This document shows positions 10,001-60,369 of a stretch of 64,000 nt of DNA, in pieces; the first letter of the stretch is position 1, and each line of letters starts with the position of its first letter. Made by a program: the position numbers and the translations under genes. The stretch is from Strongyloides papillosus (lineage: Eukaryota > Nematoda > Chromadorea > Rhabditida > Strongyloididae). The stretch lies in assembly GCA_005656395.1 (NCBI GenBank), contig SRSI01000048.1, positions 1,364,001-1,428,000 of the forward strand, given 5' to 3'. The notes below the pieces were generated by a model, which saw nothing but the letters and a program-made list of their open reading frames with translations, searched no databases and was not told the DNA's origin.

Positions 10001-10908
10001 TTTCTTCCTAATGCCCATCTATAAATATAATAGCAGTAGCTATATCTTTTAAAAATACTTAAATTAAAGATTACATTTATTATCAATTGTTCCTAGATTG
10101 GCTCAATAATATTTAGTGATAAAAAAGATTAATCAATAGATATTTGATAAAAGATTAAAATCACTCTACTCACCTTATATTATGAGTATTAAACTTTTCT
10201 TAACATTGTTTTTACAACAATTTAAATAATAACTAGAGTGGCAAAGTTTTGAAATCATTAAAATTTATTAGTACCTTTCATTGTTATAATCTTTATTTCA
10301 GACATTTTCCACCCACAATTATTTTTAACTCTTATTAATTATCAGCACGTATATTTTAGCATAATTTTTAAGATACTTTTATATGTTTATAGTATAAAAA
10401 AGAAAGTTAAATTAAACCTTATTTTAGCATAGATTAGAACAAGAATTCTTAAAAAGACTTATATATTTTGTTATTTTAAATTGATAAAAGTTTATATTTA
10501 ATTTAACATTCTTTATAATTATTTTATACCAAATTTAAATTTCATTGTATCATGAGTTTCTTTGATATCTCTTACTATTTTACAAATAAGTCAAAATTTT
10601 TTTATAACATTTCTGATATACTTATCAATGTTTTATTCAACCATTTATGATAAATAAAAAAATAACAAAACGATAATTAATTATAATTTCTATTTTTACT
10701 TTTTATTCATTTTTAAATATATATATATTTACTTTCATTGTATTTAAAAAAACTATTATTTTTTTAGTTATATAACATAGTTATATTATCAACATCGAAT
10801 GCTTTGTATATGCTATATATCTCTATTCGAATATTCTTATAAAAGCATTTTTAAATCCTGATTTATTATTATTATTTATTTACTATTTATTTTGGAAGCT
10901 TTATTTTA
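7035..10908. other. long intergenic region between Frizzled and lev-10
   Basis: About 3.9 kb without a supportable gene, between divergent genes, so it holds both promoters. A possible 72-codon stretch on the minus strand at 8050-8268 starts from GTG and resembles low-complexity hydrophobic translation; I do not accept it. Many poly-A/T runs; no clear repeat unit. Confidence 0.5.
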
Positions 10909-13900
10909 ATGTTCCTAAATTTTAATGATAAAAAAATTCTTTACTACATATTCTATTTTACTGTAATTATTGGACTAATAAAATGTCAAAAACATGATAT
11001 ATTAACGCGTAAGTTTAAAACATTCTTTTGTCAATGAAAAAAGATTGGAAATTCTTTCTTTAATAAACAAATATACATTAGACTTTTTTTAAGAATAAAA
11101 AATTTTTTAATTTATTTATAATTTCTTATTCCTACTCTTAGCCTTAAATCTTGTTATCAAATTTAAAATTAAACTCTTTACCACAAGCTATTTGTTAAAA
11201 ATTGTTAAAACTAGATAAGTTAGTCAAAAAGTACTTCATATTTAAAATAAATTACAATGGGAAGATAAATGTTGTTATACAAGAAATTAAAGATCTTAGC
11301 AAATATATTAAGTGATAAAGAAATGATGAACAATTTTAATTTACCTTTCTAATAATTACCTCATCACAAAACTGTATTATCATTTTTAAATGTGCGCAAT
11401 GTATATATAATATAAAAGTTGATGATGAATGTAATTTGATAAAAAGAGAACTAAGTTTATTAGTATTGTCTACATCTTTATAAAATTTCTTATCTGTCAA
11501 AAATTTATAATATCTAATTCATTGGGAACATTTTCATTATTTTAAAATGGTTACTGAATATCAAGCACGAACATTAGAAAATGTTGTTGATGCCAGAATT
11601 GGAATTTTACAATTTGAGAAAGAGGAGGATGATGAAATGGAAGAAGATTGTTCATTTTGTAGATCACTTGATTGTGATATATTATTTGCTTTGTCATTTA
11701 CACTTATAATCATAGGACTTTTAATATTAATTGTTATATTTTGGCTTAAGGGTGTAATGCAATATCAAGAGTAAGTTTTTTTTTATGTTGAATAAGCTTT
11801 GTTATAATTTAAAATTACTTTTTTTTCTACCTCTATTTTTTCATTGACAAAAGATAATTTATTTTTTATTATTACCTTAACTTTTTATTTATTTATATAG
11901 AATGTGATTATCTTTTTGATTCAACAAAACCAAAAGGAACCTTTAATTTTCCTATTCTTACTACTAATCCATCTTTATATAATAATAAACATTCTTCTAA
12001 CGGTGAGGTATTTTCAACTTCATTAACTGATGAGCTTAACACTAATTCCGATTTAATTGAATCACAAATTGCTGATAACATTCAGGTTTTTTTTATAATA
12101 AATTAAATTCTAATAAAAATATCTAATTATTTTTTAGTGTATATACACGTTTGTCGCCAGAAAAGGACAACGCGTCAAATTAGAATTTACTGATTTTCAA
12201 CTGGCAGGTACAGTAGATAATTGTGAAGTTGAATATGTAGATATTTATTCTGAATTAAAAGATCCAAATGAAGATCTCTTATCTGTTGAAGTTGGAGGAA
12301 GATATTGTGGGACAGTTGCTCCAACTATACGTATATCATTATACAATATTATTGTTTTAGTATTTCATTCCCGAGTTGGTAAAAGAAGAAATGAAAATTT
12401 AGTTATTAAAGGAAAATATTCATTTATAAGTGATGAAAAGTATATTGCCGGTTTACCACTTCCTAAAATATCAATGTGTTCATTTTTAATAGAGCATAAT
12501 GGAAGAAAAAGTAAAGGTGTTATTTTATCACCAACATATCCTGGTGTCTATCCGAATAATATAATTTGTGTATATTTATTAAAAGGTAAACCAAATGAAA
12601 GAATAAGGATATTTTTGAAAGATTTTGATATATATTTTGGTGGTGAACATTGTCCATATGATGTATTGACAATATATGATGGCAATGATAATACATCACC
12701 TATTATTAAAAAAGTTTGTGGCTTACAACAAAAAATGGAAATATTTTCATCATCAAATAATTTATATATTGAATTTTTGACATCTGATCCATTTAAAAAT
12801 GATCAAAGAGGATTTTTGATAGAATATGAATTTTCATCACGTTTTGTACATATACCCAAATTGATACAGAATTCAAAGGGCGTCACACATATTAGGGGAA
12901 CTGAATGTGATGTACGTGTCCAGAGTAGTAAAGAATCAACACATTTCATATATTCACCAAATTTTCCTGATATGTATCCAAGTAACATCTCATGTACATA
13001 TATATTAGATGGCTTACAAGGTGATCAAAATTTAGAAAAAGTTTTACTTACTTTTGAGCAATTAGCTGTATTCTCTGAAAATTATAATAATGTTGGAGTG
13101 ATAAATAATGGAATAAACAATAATGATATTGAATGCCCATCAGCTTATGTTGGTATTGCTTATGATATAAATAATATAAAAGCTGTATTATCAAATTCTG
13201 AAGGAAGTGCTTTTGATAAAATATTATGTGAAAGGTTGGTTAGTGGTAATGAATTAATGGGACCATATGAATCAAAAAGTAGTAGAATGGTAGTAGATTT
13301 TGAGTCAGCTGACAATCCAAGAAATGATGGAAATGTTAATTTAGGATATGGTTTTAAAGCAAGAGTAGATTTTAGAACTGATTTTGGTGTACCAGGTGAA
13401 GCAGTTGGTGATTCAAATAAATGCCTTTTTAGATTTAAAGATAAGAAAGGTTCATTTAATAGTCCACGTTTCCCTAGTAATGTAAGTTATATATTAATTT
13501 TAATATTTATATATTTTATTTATTTAAAGTATCCTCTCGATACAACGTGTACCTATTTAATTGAAGGAAATCCTGGTGATCAAATTATAATTAATTTTGA
13601 TGCTTTTGAATTGTTTGAAGATTTATCAACAGATATTTGTAATGATTACATAGAATTATATAATGTTTTTACTGATAAAAGGGGTCAGGAAACATTTCAA
13701 TTACAGGAAAAATATTGTTGGAATATGAAACCTGGTCCTAGTATTTCAGCATATAATGCTTATAAAATGAAATTGATATTTGTTAGTAGTCATGAAGGAT
13801 CGAGTAATGGTTTCAAGGCAACATATAAAATAAAAAAAAGATTTAAAGAAGAAATTCCTTCCGTTGAAGGAAAAGATGATGATCATTGTGGTGTTTCTAT

Positions 13901-15164
13901 AGTTGCAAGTGATGGATTTACATCTGGTACATTTAAATCACCAAACTATGGTACTAAATATGCCAAAAATACTTATTGTGATTGGGAAATAGTAGCAAGA
14001 GAAGATCATCAAATTCATTTGAAAATTGGTAAATTAGATGTTGAAGGAACATTAGATAGTGATAGATTCTCTTGTTTATCAGCTGTCATAAGAGTTCTTC
14101 CAGATGTTACAGATCCAACATCAGTTATACAAGTTTGTGGAGATGTTGCAACAAATGTTAAACCTGTTACCTCTAAAGGTAATAAATTACGAATAAGTTT
14201 TTACACATCAATGGATAAAGTTAATGGTTTGAAAGGATTTCTCTATGAATGGACAGAAGTCAAAATAGTTGAAAAAGATAGTGAATGTTCTGGAGACGAT
14301 AAATACCTTTGTACTTATTCTAAAATGTGTATTGATAAGGAATTAAGATGTAATTCAATGTATAATTGTGGATTGAATGATGAAAGTGACGAAACTCATT
14401 GTAAGTTAATTTATATTTCATAACTTTCTATGTTGTTGTTTGTTTTTTGTCGTGTCTGTTAAATTATCAATTAATTATATCTAACATAGGTAATAATGAA
14501 AATGATGTTATTTCTAACACAAATGAAACATCACAAATGCTTGATGGAATGATAATACCTAAATTGTTTAAAATTATTGCAATTCCAAAAACTAACTCCT
14601 TTAATGCTTCAAAAATGTCCATTCCCATAATATTGTTATATCAACTAACATTTTCCTTGATACTAATATTAAGTTATAGGTATTTTATTTAACATTTAAA
14701 AAAAATATAATTTCTATCTATTTTTAGGTAATATAACAGAATTAGCCTCAGATCTTCGTTCAGTCATTGCTGCAGGTATCTTTTCTGGAGCAATACTTTT
14801 ATTTATCCTAGTATTCTTTGCTTTTCTTTTTAAAAAGAAAATGGAAAAAAGAAGAATTAAAAATAGCATAAGATCTTCTAATTTCCGTGGAGCTAAACCT
14901 CGTATACCATATCGACAACAACAACCAGTAGGAAGAATTATTGTTTCAAATAAAGATTTAGACTTAAGTCGTTATGAACATGGTCAAAACGGGTTGATCT
15001 CTTCCCCATTAACGTCAAGATTTATCAATCATGACGCTACTGGTATCGTTCCTCCTACTTCAACAACAACAACTGATAGTATAAAAAATTTAGACGAAAG
15101 TTGTAATGTAAATAGAAATATGTTATTGACAACTAGACTCGATGACAAAACATTTGATTGTTAA
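10909..15164 (+). CDS. lev-10: LEV-10-type acetylcholine receptor clustering protein
   Basis: Exons 10909-11008, 11901-12085, 12138-13481, 13530-14400 and 14728-15164 join in frame (phases 1, 0, 0, 1) to 978 residues. Exon 1 encodes a signal peptide ending near LIKC at residue 26. Five CUB domains follow at roughly 35-205, 209-328, 352-507, 525-644 and 663-790. An LDL-receptor class A module with Cys pairs and the DESDETHC ending is at 796-834, a membrane segment at ~847-869, and a ~110-residue cytoplasmic tail completes it. Five CUB plus one LDLa plus TM is the architecture of C. elegans LEV-10, which clusters levamisole-sensitive acetylcholine receptors at neuromuscular junctions. The 48-bp third intron is a multiple of three without stops, so it can read through. 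An EAT-18-like protein lies in intron 1, and an alternative last exon lies at 14490-14692. Confidence 0.88.
11547..11774 (+). CDS. eat-18: EAT-18-like single-pass membrane protein, nested in lev-10 intron 1
   Basis: Single-exon 75-residue protein inside the 892-bp first intron of lev-10, same strand. It has an acidic N-terminal half (EKEEDDEMEED), a cysteine cluster CSFCRSLDC, and one membrane segment at about residues 45-67, ending WLKGVMQYQE. In C. elegans EAT-18, about 70 residues with one TM, is a partner of the pharyngeal nicotinic receptor and its gene overlaps the lev-10 locus; size, topology and position all match, which is why I use the name. The stop codon overlaps a consensus donor (GA|GTAAGT at 11771), but splicing it to the lev-10 exon at 11901 gives phase 2 and an immediate in-frame TGA, so the ORF does not feed LEV-10 as read. 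I cannot align it to EAT-18 from memory. Confidence 0.65.
   Translation: MVTEYQARTLENVVDARIGILQFEKEEDDEMEEDCSFCRSLDCDILFALSFTLIIIGLLILIVIFWLKGVMQYQE
14490..14692 (+). CDS. lev-10: alternative last exon of lev-10 (hydrophobic, possibly GPI-type C terminus)
   Basis: Preceded by an acceptor (ACATAG|GT) and in the same phase as the TM-encoding exon at 14728. Both begin GTAA and both complete the last LDLa cysteine (T|GT). Joined to the exon ending at 14400 it would add 66 residues after that cysteine and then stop at 14690-14692. The end is hydrophobic (about the last 25 residues, MSIPIILLYQLTFSLILIL then SYRYFI), preceded by NASK. This could be a GPI signal or a tail-less membrane anchor. Splicing onward from this exon into 14728 would give an immediate stop, so it is best read as a mutually exclusive terminal exon. 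Predicted isoform about 900 residues. No polyadenylation site was assigned. Confidence 0.5.
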
Positions 15165-15286: not shown

Positions 15287-17014
15287 TTAAACAAAATTCC
15301 TTTTACTAAAATATAGAGCCAATTTATTGAACTTCTTAACGTATCCAATATTCATTCGTGTTAATCCAAGGACCACACGATGTTTTCCACTTGAAATGTA
15401 TGGTTCTATATAATTTATCAATACTCTATAAACATAAAGATAATGCATGTAATGTTTAACTGCATGCTTTCTTTGAAGGCGAAGGAATGTTGCTGCAGTG
15501 AAGACTGGATTAGACATTGAAGGTCCACGTAGTAATTGCATTAAAGAGCATTCAATTAAAATTAATGCTCCAGTACGACCAACACCATCGGCACATTGAA
15601 CAATTGTTGGGAAAGGTGACAAACGAGCACGACGTAATACACGGGTTGGCCAATTAATATCAAGAAAATCATTCCAATCATAATGCCAAAGCTCCACAAT
15701 ATGTGGTTTACTTTGTGAAGACAATTGTCTTATTTCAAGAGTTGTAATATTAAAAACAGGATCTGCTAAACAGTCAACATTTATATTTTTAACAATAATA
15801 TCTCCATACTGCTTTTCAGTGCCTTGTAATCTTGGCCAATAACAGTGTTGATATGGTGATTCATTAATCTCTCCTTCTGACATACTTTCAATACGTGATA
15901 ATAAAATTATATATTGTGATTTTTCACAAACAATCATCTTGTAAAATTGAACACACTTATCATGAGTGGGGACATTTGAAGCAATAAATGTGTTCATTAA
16001 TGGACCACCTTGCACATATGAAGCACCTTTATATTGTTCATTTTTCCTATTTTCAAATCGTGGTGTCTTAACGACAGACTTTGTTAAATCATACCATGTA
16101 GGTGCAGCTCCTCTTTTACCACTGTATGGTGTTCCAGAGCAAGTGTGAGTATTAATGATAGAAATACTTTGGTCATAGTTGACAATATTGGCACATTGTA
16201 CATTCTTTTCTTTAACTTTTTCTTCAATTACATCTAATTGCCTGAATTCTCCAATAAATTGCTTAAAAATTTAATTAAAGAATTACTATATTTTAATTTT
16301 TTAACGCTATACACTTACAAGTAAATCAGTTTTAACATTTCCCGGATCAGAAACAAAACTCCATCTTATCAACTTATGAACGCTTTCAACAAAACGACCA
16401 ATGCGAGTCATAATGTTATCAGATGATTCCAGATCTGGACTATACCAATTTAAGGTTGGATCTTGATCCCTAAGTTCATCAAAACGTTCCGTTCGTATCT
16501 CATTACCAGGAGTTTCTTCAAATAACTTAACTACTGTGTCCAGATCAATTCCACTATTTAAAGCTTCTTTGATAGCACCTGCCTTGTGGACACCATATAC
16601 ACGATCCATAGCATCACTCTCAACATTTCTTAAATTATCAATATTACTAGCATAAATAGCATCCATCATAACTCTTTGGAAATAAACATCATGTCCTATG
16701 TTTATCAATTTATAAAGCATCTCTGATTTGAATGATTTATATTCACTATTTTCTTGCTCAATCAATCTTTGTCGTATAGGGACTGTTAAAGTGAATGTTA
16801 ATTTATAAAAAATACGAGAAAAAAATCCAAGGTCACCATTTTCAATTCTCTTATGTAAAGATGTATTCTTTTTTTGATCATCGGAAGATTGCCACCATTT
16901 TTCTGTTATGTAAGCATCCTTTAAAATATTTTTATATATTTAAATTATATATTAATTACATACCTTTACATCATTATCAATTTGAATAATAACATTTTCG
17001 GTTTCATGGATCAT
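15287..17014 (-). CDS. non-receptor protein tyrosine phosphatase, nematode type
   Basis: Exons 17014-16964, 16918-16319 and 16261-15287 (introns 45 and 57 bp, phase 0) give 541 residues with no signal peptide or TM. The N-terminal ~220 residues are helical and not recognised. Residues ~240-510 form a classical PTP domain: the phosphotyrosine-loop region GASYVQGGP, a WPD-like loop WND (Asp415), and signature QCADGVGRTG with nucleophile Cys440 and Arg446. The usual His before the cysteine is Gln, and the WPD proline is Asn, so activity may be altered but is not excluded. Predicted cytosolic; substrates unknown. It converges with lev-10 (gap 122 bp) and is third in a same-strand row with presenilin and IDH3. 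Confidence 0.85.
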
Positions 17015-17301: not shown

Positions 17302-18607
17302 TTAAATGATAATATTATTATTGGCCATTTCTTGGTAAAAAGGTGATCCTAGATAATATGTTCCAAAAAAGAATATTATACTACTAAATATTGATATTGG
17401 AAGAGCAGGTAAAGCACGCTTAAAGTACACCAAGATAAATATTGTCATTGTCAAGCCCTGAAAAGTTATTTTTGTTATAAATGTAATGATTTCGATGACT
17501 TACAGTGAGTATTGATGTGAAACAATTAACTAATGATATTGGATCTTTATATCTATAGACGTGTAAAATAAGTAACGTATAAAAAACAAAGTCCCCCATT
17601 CCTAATTTTGCATTCTCGTTTTCTTCTTCTTCTGAATTATCCTCAATTATTTTTTTCTTGTTATTTGTTTCATTTTTTTCTTCATCTTTTTTACTATTAT
17701 CTACCTTTTTTTTGTCTTCATCTTTTTTATTATCATCAAACTTTTTTTTGTTATCATCACTTTTTACAATTTCAGTATGTGCCATACAAGAGTAAACTAA
17801 TGCACTAAATAATTCTTCATTTCTTTTTTGTGCTGTATTAACTAAAATATTTAAAGGACCTTTACTCCATAATACAGCAACTAAATCCCACGAAGAAATT
17901 GTTATAAGAATAGACCAAATGATCCATTCTGGAAACAATGAAACAAATAACAAAGCAATATTTACACCAAGAATAATATGAAAAAATTGTCTTAATTTTA
18001 GAGGACCAAATCCATTAATTGAGAATACACCTATCAGACTAAAAATAACACAAATAATTGTTAATGTCCAATCACTAACTAATATTTCAAAGTAAACAAA
18101 TGTTTTTCCTAAAATTTTTGTTTCAGTGACCATGAGTGAAAAAAATATTTGTATATAAAAGAAATATTCAAGCCATCTTTTAAATCCTTTAACGTAAAGA
18201 AACACCAATAAAGATGTCATGACAATAATAACACCAAGGAAACACAACGTAATAATTAACAACATTGATATAGAAGGAATAGAATCTAATAATCCAGTAT
18301 ATTGGGTTGATTTAGCTTTTATCATAGATTGTTTGTCATTGTAACTTTAAAAAATATAATTAAATACAAAATAATATTTAAAAAAAACTTACATCAAACT
18401 CATAGCTAAACTAAAAATTTCTGAAAATGGAGATATATATTTTTCTATGAGAAGCCCGATAACAGCACATATTGTTATTGGTATATATAGATCTATAACT
18501 GTATTTAGTCGTTTGTTTATATTGTAACGTGAATCCTTCCCATTACTTTTATGGTTTCCATTCTTCAATTGATCGCTTTCCTCGCTAGAACTAGATTCAC
18601 TGGACAT
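17302..18607 (-). CDS. presenilin (gamma-secretase catalytic subunit)
   Basis: Exons 18607-18393, 18344-17504 and 17457-17302 (introns 48 and 46 bp, phases 2 and 0) give 403 residues. It has multiple membrane segments with presenilin landmarks: the VMT stretch in TM2, the TM6 aspartate in SSWDLVAVLW (Asp225), the sequence GPLNILVNTAQKRNE after TM6, the GxGD motif as LGMGD (Asp323) in TM7 and PALP (369-372) in the last segment. Both catalytic aspartates are present, so it should be an intramembrane aspartyl protease that cleaves Notch-type substrates. The residue before the TM6 aspartate is Trp where presenilins have Tyr. The hydrophilic loop (about 260-320) is a Lys/Asp/Glu/Asn-rich low-complexity stretch. 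C. elegans has sel-12 and hop-1 as somatic presenilins; I cannot assign which. Confidence 0.92.
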
Positions 18608-57405: not shown

Positions 57406-60369
57406 TTAGGTTTGTTTACCAGCAGTACCAGTTCCATGATGATGATGGTGAGATGGATGATAGTATGGATGAGTTTCAGCACGGACAGAAGACGATGGCG
57501 TAGACCCTACAGCTGTAGTAGTAGTAGATGGAATGTTATTCAATGTGTTACTACGGCGCTGTGATGATGGCAGGAGAGCGCCTATAAGAGAGGTTAGAAT
57601 TATGTTAATAAATAAAATAAATTTTTTTTAAATTATTAAATATTATTATTAATAACAAATAACAATACTTTTTCCTATCTTTTTTGTTATTTTATCTATA
57701 TATTTTTTGATAGTATAAATTAAAAAAAAATAGTAGCAAAAAATTGATTTAAACATAGTAAAACAACAAAAAAAGCTAATAAAAAAAGTCTTTTTAAAAA
57801 AAAAACTATAAATCAACTATCAAATTCTTTCTATATTTTTTTACAAAAAAATCACCTAAAAGTAATAACTTTTTGATAATAATTTACTTACCTGTTAAAT
57901 CATATTGTTGATATTCACCCAAAAGACCTTGTCCACTTTGTGCCATTAACATTGCAGCATATTGTTGCTGTTGTTGGTGGTGGATTGCTGCAGCATTTGC
58001 CACAGCAGCACCATTTAATGCATCATACCCTAATTGATTTAATAATAATTGTTGATACTCAGCAGAAACCTGTTGTCCTGCTGCGGCTAACAATTGTCCA
58101 CCTCCTAATACACCACCACTACCATTTACACTATTATTTTGGTTTATTAAATTAATTGCTGCCGCCTGTTGGGCTGCTTGAATTTGTGCTTGAGCAGCTA
58201 TTGCTGCTGCAGCTGCTGAATTTGGTGTACTCCTATGTTGAGGAGTTGCATTTTGTTGTAAAACTATTGGTGTACCAACTAATGATGGTGAACGGATCTG
58301 TGGGACTATTGAACCTAATGTTGATGCTAAGACACTTGATCCTGCTAGACTTTTTGATCCGGTATTTGTTAATGCTCCAGTTGCTAATGGTTGATTGGTT
58401 AATGGATTAACAGGTAAACCATTTGATCCTGTTCTATATGTTCCATTAATAATAGCTAGTTCCATTAGTTGTTTCTTCTTCAACTCATCTTCACCCTCAG
58501 GTGCTGGTACTAGTAATTTTCTAACCTCTTCGATAGCTCTTTGAATCTTAACATCACACCTATTTTTCGTATCTTCACATTGTATCAAAACATGTAAATC
58601 CTCCGATAAATGTTCCCAATTGGGTTTACCTCTATTCATATCCTCTTTTTTCTTATCCCTCATGGAACCTTTACCACGTACCATAATTTTACAGCCAGTC
58701 TCCTGTTCAAGTTGTTTAGCTGTCATACCCCTTGGTCCAAGGATACGACCAACAAAATTATATTCAGGATATGCTTTTACAGGTACAAAAACTTTTTCTG
58801 TTACTGTTATAACCTCACCAATTGGTGATGGTAATATAAGTTGTTCTTTGGTAAATTCAAATTGAAATAAGGCAAAACGTACTCTATTAATCTCTTCATC
58901 TAATAATCTTTCTATATGTATAAATATACCAGGAAATGCTAATAACTGTTTTCGATCTTTGACTAACTCAGCTAAATACTCCACTGTATAATTTTGTTGG
59001 ATACTTTGATGAGTTATTGTATGATTATTATTTGATATTCCTGTTGATGATGTAACTGATGGTATTGATGATGTATTATTATTATTATGAGTATCAATTG
59101 TTGGTGCTATTTTAGAATCATCCATTGTACTTAGAATTATTCCATCACTACTACTTTGGTCGGGTTCTGTTGGCCCACCTAATTTATTATTATTACTAGC
59201 ACTATCATTTATAACATTTTCTGTTATTGTATTCATATCTTTATCAAATATATTATTTGCTATAAGTAAAAAAAATAATTATATATAAGAAGTGAGAATA
59301 AAATAGGTTATAATATTTTATGGAAAAAAATTCTATTTCTTAAAAAAGTAATATTTATAAAAAAAGAAAAGATTTGTAGATATATAAAGAAAATATATAA
59401 GATTAATATATATTAGACAACTTAAGAAAGTTATATGAAAAACGGAAATGGTCTTTTTTCCTTAATAATTTCTATCTTTAATATATATACATGTCATTTA
59501 AAGTAAAAGAGATAATATTTGAAGCGTAATTAATATCCATTTTGGTATGTTGTTAAATTTTAAGAAAAATTTCAACATCCTATCTCCTATTTTGTCTTCA
59601 TTTATTATAAATGATAATAACATACAGTTTTGATTTTATTTATAATTATAAAAATTTATAAATAAATTGTGTATATGTGAATGGGTTAAAGGAATCGGAG
59701 AAATCTTGTTGTTCTTAACAAAAAGTATGATGACATGTAATTGAAATTATTTATTGTCAAATTAATTTCAATAATTATTTTCTTTGCCTTTTTTAATAAT
59801 TTTTTACTAACTAAAAAATAATTTTTAAAGTTATATAGATATTTTATAATATATACACAACAGTTAATTATTAAAATAAATTATGTCATGAAAGGCAGAA
59901 AAAAGAAAATAATTATTGAAAATATTACTAATTTATATAACTAATAGAGTTATTTATTTTTTCATTATATATTAAAACATCTTTTGTACTTGGAGGAGTA
60001 AAATAATAAATAAAAAAATTGTACATATTAAGATATGTTAATATTTAAAATTATTTATATAAACATAAACGACATAAAGAATAATTACATTTCAAAAGAA
60101 GGTATCTTAAACTTACAGGTGATAGGAGAATTTTCACAAAATACTGATGTATTAAAATAGTTAGATGGTGAGGAATAAGAATTAATATTATTATTATTAG
60201 TTGTAGTATCAATAGATGAATTGGATACCAAAGAACTAGTAGTAATAGGAGTAGAAGGAGAAGTAGTTGATTGTTGTTGTTCTTGACTTTTTGTTGGTGT
60301 TGTTAGGAATTTTGTATTATTATTATTTTCCAATAATATAGGAAGCGATGATGGAGATGAGGAACACAT
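57406..60369 (-). CDS. asd-2: STAR-family RNA-binding protein, ASD-2/Quaking type
   Basis: Exons 60369-60117, 59259-57892 and 57581-57406 (introns 857 and 310 bp, both phase 1) give 598 residues. The first exon adds 84 Ser/Thr/Asn-rich residues in frame. Starting at the next ATG (59236) would give a 506-residue form. The QUA1 dimerisation region ([19 protein letters not shown] then [11 protein letters not shown]) precedes a maxi-KH domain ([20 protein letters not shown], then [18 protein letters not shown]) and QUA2 ([20 protein letters not shown]). A Gln/Ala-rich region follows, and the last exon ends in a His/Thr-rich tail ([12 protein letters not shown]). These are Quaking/HOW/ASD-2 features: STAR proteins bind ACUAAY-type sites and control alternative splicing, here probably including muscle transcripts as ASD-2 does. 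Confidence 0.93.

What the first reader, a model, noticed from the sequence alone, without database searches (positions are those of the whole stretch)
10909..12140. EAT-18-like gene nested inside the first intron of lev-10
The LEV-10 signal-peptide exon (10909-11008, phase 1) joins cleanly to the CUB exon at 11901. The 892-bp intron between them holds a complete 75-codon single-TM protein on the same strand. In C. elegans, eat-18 (pharyngeal nicotinic receptor partner) and lev-10 (levamisole-receptor clustering) are overlapping genes. Finding the same pairing here suggests a conserved nested arrangement coupling two acetylcholine-receptor accessory proteins. The EAT-18 stop overlaps a consensus donor whose use would give a premature stop in LEV-10.
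Basis: partly seen in the sequence, partly recalled or inferred. Interest (0 to 1): 0.75.

Follow-up and report, generated by a model that had tools for sequence, protein, structure and literature searches.

The report
Receptor-helper gene nested in lev-10 intron
[quoted passage not shown] elegans, and it is bracketed by a matching pair of sequences that could fold it out of the way when lev-10 is spliced.

Summary
The 75-codon ORF (11547-11774) is 54% identical over 68 residues to C. elegans EAT-18 and 99% to a S. venezuelensis protein. It is the only match found in the genome and lies on the same strand inside intron 1 of a lev-10 gene (five CUB domains, weak LDLa, one TM).

The donor overlapping its stop is best read as eat-18's own donor. 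Splicing 11770 to 11901 reads lev-10 exon 2 in another frame and stops after one codon (...QYQEM*). C. elegans eat-18c is printed as spliced into lev-10 exon 2 out of frame (...EEMRSTL*); the junction inferred from a published primer has the same phase. So the arrangement is known; this extends it to Strongyloides.

New here: a perfect 19-nt inverted repeat (11024-11042 / 11836-11854) brackets eat-18, 15 nt from lev-10's donor and 46 nt from the shared acceptor. No other exact copy exists in 58 Mb, and 0 of 600 intron shuffles reach 19. It could loop eat-18 out only in transcripts started at lev-10's promoter: a possible built-in splice switch. No RNA data and no second species were available to test it.

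The parts
10909..11008 (+). lev-10 exon 1, coding part: ATG and a hydrophobic stretch that may be a signal peptide (not tested with a predictor); ends in phase 1 at donor GTAAGT 11009-11014
   Evidence: open frame joins exon 2 as Q-C-D-Y
11009..11900 (+). lev-10 intron 1 (892 bp), host of eat-18
   Evidence: GTAAGT ... TTTATATAG
11024..11042 (+). left arm of perfect 19-nt inverted repeat (TCTTTTGTCAATGAAAAAA), 15 nt after the end of lev-10 exon 1
11547..11770 (+). eat-18 coding exon (EAT-18 residues 1-74 plus two bases of codon 75)
11771..11776 (+). predicted eat-18 splice donor GTAAGT, phase 2
   Evidence: GAG-TRA-GT in 2 of 185 GAR-stop contexts on both window strands, this site counted among them
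11772..11774 (+). TAA that ends the EAT-18 frame if the donor is not used; lies inside the donor GTAAGT
11836..11854 (+). right arm of the inverted repeat (exact reverse complement of 11024-11042), 46 nt before the shared acceptor, inside the predicted eat-18 intron
11901..12085 (+). lev-10 exon 2; predicted shared acceptor. In the EAT-18 frame A ATG TGA gives M, then stop at 11905-11907
12138..13481 (+). lev-10 exon 3, three CUB matches
13530..14400 (+). lev-10 exon 4, two CUB matches and weak LDLa
14728..15164 (+). lev-10 last exon: transmembrane segment and tail

Best explanation
The locus is one lev-10/eat-18 complex gene. lev-10 starts at exon 1 (10909) and makes the five-CUB receptor-clustering protein. 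eat-18 starts from its own start site inside lev-10 intron 1 and encodes the small single-TM auxiliary protein of the pharyngeal acetylcholine receptor. Its coding exon ends at 11770 and is most likely spliced to lev-10's own exon 2 at 11901, read in a different frame, giving ...QYQE-M-stop (76 aa). Because the donor GTAAGT contains the TAA, an unspliced message still ends properly at residue 75. Shown: sequence, orthology, position, splice-site sequences and phases. Inferred: separate start site, actual use of 11770-11901, role in the pharynx.
For: Orthology: 37/68 identical to C. elegans EAT-18 (P0019), E 3e-27; 99% to A0A0K0G2F9 of S. venezuelensis; one match in the genome, in this intron. 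Host: five CUB matches at E <= 1e-3 (3 in exon 3, 2 in exon 4), LDLa below cut-off, one TM near the C-terminus, against the description of LEV-10 as type 1, one LDLa and five CUB in PMC9083331 (passages). Splicing: PMC7173930 (passages) says the first exon of eat-18 lies in lev-10 intron 1 and eat-18c is spliced to lev-10 exon 2 in a different frame ending 16 bp on. Its 3' primer reads EEMRSTL* in one frame and CDQHF in another, against CDYLF in our LEV-10 frame, so the junction is inferred as GA|AATGCGAT there and GA|AATGTGAT here. Of 30 homologues, 22 end exactly at the E before the donor, while C. elegans runs on as MRSTL.
Against: No RNA evidence. A true stop kept in place after ...E would also make the ORFs end together, and I could not read the DNA behind the homologues. 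8 of 30 do not end there: one partial (P0008), C. elegans itself (P0019), and P0010, P0014, P0023, P0026, P0029 and P0031. The S. venezuelensis record is a 75-aa protein, that is, the unspliced reading. The exact C. elegans splice position depends on whether '16 bp' counts the stop codon. GTAAGT is not enriched in the window (28 seen, mean 30.8 in shuffles). No separate promoter is shown.
Confidence: 0.78

Rival explanations
1. eat-18 is a simple intronless gene wholly inside lev-10 intron 1; TAA 11772-11774 is the real stop and the overlapping GTAAGT is coincidence or unused.
For: The UniRef protein of S. venezuelensis has exactly 75 residues; 22 of 30 homologues end at that residue. GTAAGT is not enriched in the window (28 seen, mean 30.8 in shuffles).
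Against: C. elegans EAT-18 runs past this residue, by splicing into lev-10 exon 2. A consensus donor at just this stop is seen in 2 of 185 comparable contexts, this one included. Phase and first bases of exon 2 agree with the junction inferred for C. elegans.
Confidence: 0.17
2. The 19-nt inverted repeat is neutral (a small inverted duplication) or a pair of protein-binding sites in DNA, with no role in splicing.
For: One more long perfect repeat pair sits in the window at 59766/59902, not placed in any known splice setting; the arms have sharp ends; the 19-mer is close to its own reverse complement (3 mismatches), as a dimer-binding site could be; the statistics were done after seeing it; the whole intron folds no better than shuffles; in the folding model eat-18's donor is not hidden by the stem.
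Against: Placement 15 nt and 46 nt from the two lev-10 splice sites, bracketing eat-18; no other exact copy in the genome; 0 of 600 intron shuffles reach 19; none of 17 nt or more in 105,873 bases of 30 other loci, which partly overlap and are centred on receptor exons, so poorer in intron.
Confidence: 0.6
3. The ORF is a chance ORF with a hydrophobic stretch, not EAT-18.
For: Pfam and NCBIfam have no match for it; but NCBIfam has none for C. elegans EAT-18 either, and the Pfam column for that protein is empty.
Against: Homology to C. elegans EAT-18 and 29 others.
Confidence: 0.01

Closest known systems
C. elegans lev-10/eat-18 locus (Y105E8A.7; PMC7173930 passages and one section read; McKay 2004 not held; Gally 2004 not seen)
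   Same: EAT-18 exon in lev-10 intron 1, same strand (strand implied by the printed splicing); out-of-frame splice into lev-10 exon 2; matching junction phase (inferred from primer and legend)
   Different: Here EAT-18 would stop one codon after the junction (M*) instead of five (MRSTL*): CGA of C. elegans is TGA here, a silent TGC/TGT difference in the LEV-10 frame. Exon 2 skipping (isoform d-like) would give ...QYQDVYTRLSPEKDNASN* here, unverified. The passages read mention no bracketing repeat.
Long-range paired complementary intronic regions in human genes (PMC8052449, abstract read)
   Same: Complementary sequences inside introns that could loop out what lies between
   Different: Known class, per abstract, suppresses intervening exons and obstructs cryptic and inactive splice sites; here a separate gene with its own donor would lie in the loop. 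Evolutionary covariation is not tested here.

Membership tests
EAT-18 | Sequence homology to C. elegans EAT-18 | tested here: met
   54% over 68 aa, E 3e-27
EAT-18 | Small single-TM protein with EDCxxCRxLDCD before the TM | tested here: met
   one hydrophobic region (overlapping 19-residue windows span 38-74); motif EDCSFCRSLDCD
EAT-18 | Gene exon in lev-10 intron 1, same strand | tested here: met
EAT-18 | Spliced out of frame into lev-10 exon 2 | tested here: inconclusive
   donor, acceptor and phase fit; no RNA
EAT-18 | Needed for EAT-2 receptor function | not testable with these tools
   needs oocytes or worms
EAT-18 | Partner eat-2 present in the same genome | not tested
   127 matches to the ligand-binding domain, not sorted into subunits
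LEV-10 | Five CUB domains, one LDLa, type 1 TM (PMC9083331) | tested here: met
   3+2 CUB; LDLa only 16.9 bits, below cut-off 24.1; one TM; signal peptide not tested with a predictor
LEV-10 | Clusters levamisole receptors | not testable with these tools
   no function test
Intron-looping complementary regions | Long perfect complementarity within one intron, beyond chance | tested here: met
   19 nt; 0 of 600 shuffles; only exact pair in genome; test made after the fact
Intron-looping complementary regions | Pairing kept by evolution / affects splicing | not testable with these tools
   no second Strongyloides genome or RNA data in reach

The most novel reading that the evidence does not exclude
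The 19-nt arms form a promoter-dependent splice switch. In transcripts begun at lev-10's promoter both arms exist and pair, so eat-18 and its donor are looped out, the 892-nt intron is shortened to 61 nt outside the stem (lev-10 introns 2 and 3 are 52 and 48 nt; the last is 327), and exon 1 joins exon 2. In transcripts begun inside the intron the left arm is missing, the stem cannot form, and eat-18's donor takes the same acceptor. One acceptor would then serve two genes in two frames, chosen by where transcription starts.
Probability: 0.3. Interest if true: 0.68.

Novelty: new member of a known kind. Interest (0 to 1): 0.42.

Why it matters
EAT-18 is described as essential for the EAT-2 pharyngeal receptor, which is proposed as a drug target (PMC7173930, passages). 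Finding the same nested, exon-sharing arrangement with the same inferred splice phase in Strongyloides suggests it is old and constrained rather than a C. elegans oddity. It may also help explain why eat-18 is hard to annotate: nGASP lists it among 18 C. elegans genes missed in all its category 1-3 gene sets and blames a very short exon (PMC2651883, passage). The bracketing repeat gives a directly testable idea of how two genes share one splice acceptor.

Tried and rejected
Looked for relatives of EAT-18 in GTDB genome contigs and IMG/VR: 24 and 96 pattern matches, none confirmed. Pfam and NCBIfam gave no match for the window protein. PDB: for the window protein ten matches at E 0.25-0.85 (myosin-Va, a Rab-related GTPase), taken as chance; for C. 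elegans EAT-18 none up to E 1. Rfam: nothing at gathering score in the window. Folding of the whole intron is not unusual (z 0.43), so the case for the repeat rests on length, uniqueness and position. Pairing probabilities support the stem in lev-10 pre-mRNA (mean 0.95), but eat-18's donor came out more open there (0.33 unpaired) than in three trial eat-18 pre-mRNAs (0.17 each), and the acceptor about the same (0.19 against 0.13-0.26): this speaks against simple masking of the donor and leaves looping/bringing together as the possible role. AATAAA at 11984, 12097 and 12112 could end eat-18 messages early; not evaluated in this AT-rich DNA. I considered sorting the nicotinic ligand-binding exons to find eat-2, but had no reference EAT-2 sequence. 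The topology printed for EAT-18 (N inside, from Phobius) sits oddly with the acidic N flank (-5 against 0); left open.

Full report
What is there. The window lies on a 2.39-Mb contig of a 58.2-Mb genome in 79 contigs. The small protein is 99% identical to a Strongyloides venezuelensis record (A0A0K0G2F9), so the animal is a Strongyloides or very close kin (inference). The lev-10 model 10909-11008, 11901-12085, 12138-13481, 13530-14400, 14728-15164 is open for 978 aa with GT-AG introns. It has five CUB matches (three in exon 3, two in exon 4), an LDLa match below the curated cut-off (16.9 against 24.1 bits) and one hydrophobic segment at 842-873. The same scan does not flag the N-terminal stretch of exon 1, and I ran no signal-peptide predictor. 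A review describes LEV-10 as a type 1 membrane protein with one LDLa and five CUB domains (PMC9083331, passages).

EAT-18. The ORF 11547-11774 encodes 75 aa. One search found 2 proteins, a search with the alignment of these and the window protein 13, and a third, with 14 aligned sequences, 31, one of them named CELE_EAT-18 of C. elegans. I dropped one row (P0032, E 0.042, partial match) before counting, leaving 30. Direct comparison with C. elegans EAT-18: 37 of 68 identical, E 3e-27. The genome search gave one match, here; a random fall into this one intron would have odds of about 892 in 58 million (own arithmetic).

The donor that overlaps the stop. PMC7173930 (passages and one section read) states that the first exon of both C. 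[quoted passage not shown] Its 3' cloning primer reads EEMRSTL* in the EAT-18 frame and RKCDQHF in another. The protein record ends EEMRSTL. In the window, splicing 11770 to 11901 gives ...QYQE-M-stop in the EAT-18 frame, while lev-10 exon 1 joined to the same acceptor gives Q-CDYLF. So CDQHF and CDYLF are probably corresponding starts of exon 2 (I had no C. elegans LEV-10 sequence to confirm it), and the junction is GA|AATGCGAT in C. elegans (if the 16 bp are counted without the stop; counted with it the junction would move three bases) and GA|AATGTGAT here. The one-base difference is silent for LEV-10 (TGC/TGT, Cys) but turns Arg CGA into stop TGA for EAT-18.

Support from other species is indirect. 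22 of 30 homologues end exactly at the glutamate before the donor; they are apparently ORFs called on contigs, though the listing does not say whether DNA or RNA. C. elegans runs on through splicing; P0008 is one residue short (partial); P0010, P0014, P0023, P0026, P0029 and P0031 end otherwise (sequences). A donor GTRAGT after GA always reads E-stop, so the common end is what a conserved phase-2 donor predicts, but a conserved true stop predicts it too. P0023 and P0026 read on as QG-L-V and QG-S-V, compatible with a donor GTNAGT (inference from amino acids only). In the window, 2 of 185 GAR-stop contexts on both strands look like GAG-TRA-GT, this site among them; GTAAGT itself is not enriched (28 seen, mean 30.8 in shuffles).

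The bracketing repeat. A repeat search of 10400-12200 showed a perfect 19-nt inverted repeat, 11024-11042 and 11836-11854. It lies 15 nt after lev-10 exon 1 and 46 nt before the shared acceptor; the right arm is downstream of eat-18's donor. The longest perfect inverted repeat in 600 dinucleotide shuffles of the intron was 17 (mean of the longest 11.4). The genome contains the exact 19-mer once on each strand, both here; the reversed control has none. In the whole window there are three perfect repeats of 15 nt or more within 1 kb, two of them of 19 or more (this one and 59766/59902), against means of 1.1 and 0 in 60 shuffles. In 105,873 bases of 30 other loci of the genome there were four of 15 nt and none of 17 or more; these loci were picked by a receptor domain, partly overlap and are richer in exons than this intron, so they are an imperfect background. 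The duplex is predicted at -22 kcal/mol against -4.8 and -1.6 for local folds around the arms, and the pairs have mean probability 0.95 in lev-10 pre-mRNA. Against: the intron as a whole folds no better than shuffles (z 0.43); the second repeat in the window shows such pairs occur elsewhere; the statistics are after the fact; and eat-18's donor is, in the model, more open in lev-10 pre-mRNA (0.33) than in eat-18 pre-mRNA (0.17), the opposite of masking.

How it most likely works. lev-10 and eat-18 behave as one complex locus with two starts and one shared acceptor read in two frames. Which 5' partner reaches the acceptor may simply follow from where transcription starts; the repeat may help lev-10 skip over the nested gene by bringing its two splice sites together. 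A related role, suppression of intervening exons and of cryptic splice sites, is described for complementary intronic regions of human genes (PMC8052449, abstract). The switch is inference.

Novelty. The nested, exon-sharing arrangement is known in C. elegans. Searches of the open library for eat-18 with Strongyloides (none), lev-10 with Strongyloides (one paper, listing seen only), eat-18 with lev-10 (two papers, passages of both seen, the same two), Y105E8A.7 (three papers: passages of two, one listing), eat-18 with intron and ortholog (four papers: passages of three, one listing) and Strongyloides with eat-2 or acr-16 (16 papers, ten listed) showed no report of the arrangement in Strongyloides or of the repeat in what I saw. 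Subscription papers were not searchable, and McKay 2004 was not held.

Noticed in passing
window 14490-14692 (+): A possible alternative last exon of lev-10 after exon 4 (acceptor 14488-14489) ends ...KTNSFNASKMSIPIILLYQLTFSLILILSYRYFI*, or ...SYR* if a donor at 14680 is used. To the eye it looks like a GPI-anchor signal (small residues, short spacer, hydrophobic end) in place of the transmembrane exon 14728-15164; no predictor was run.
   Followed up: partly
window 59766-59785 and 59902-59921: A second perfect inverted repeat (20 nt, loop 116) in AT-rich DNA; the 20-mer occurs once more in the genome on contig C59.
   Followed up: partly
window 15287-16015 (-) and 17420-18325 (-): Neighbouring genes on the other strand: a protein-tyrosine phosphatase domain and a presenilin.
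   Followed up: no
window 11903-11905 against the published C. elegans primer: A silent difference in LEV-10's cysteine codon (TGC there, TGT here) decides whether EAT-18 keeps a four-residue RSTL tail.
   Followed up: partly
genome G000: 127 matches to the ligand-binding domain of Cys-loop channels (PF02931, a lower bound), with two places, C6:9100-9706 and C17:1149128-1149734, giving identical scores and spacing, perhaps a recent duplication or an assembly copy.
   Followed up: no
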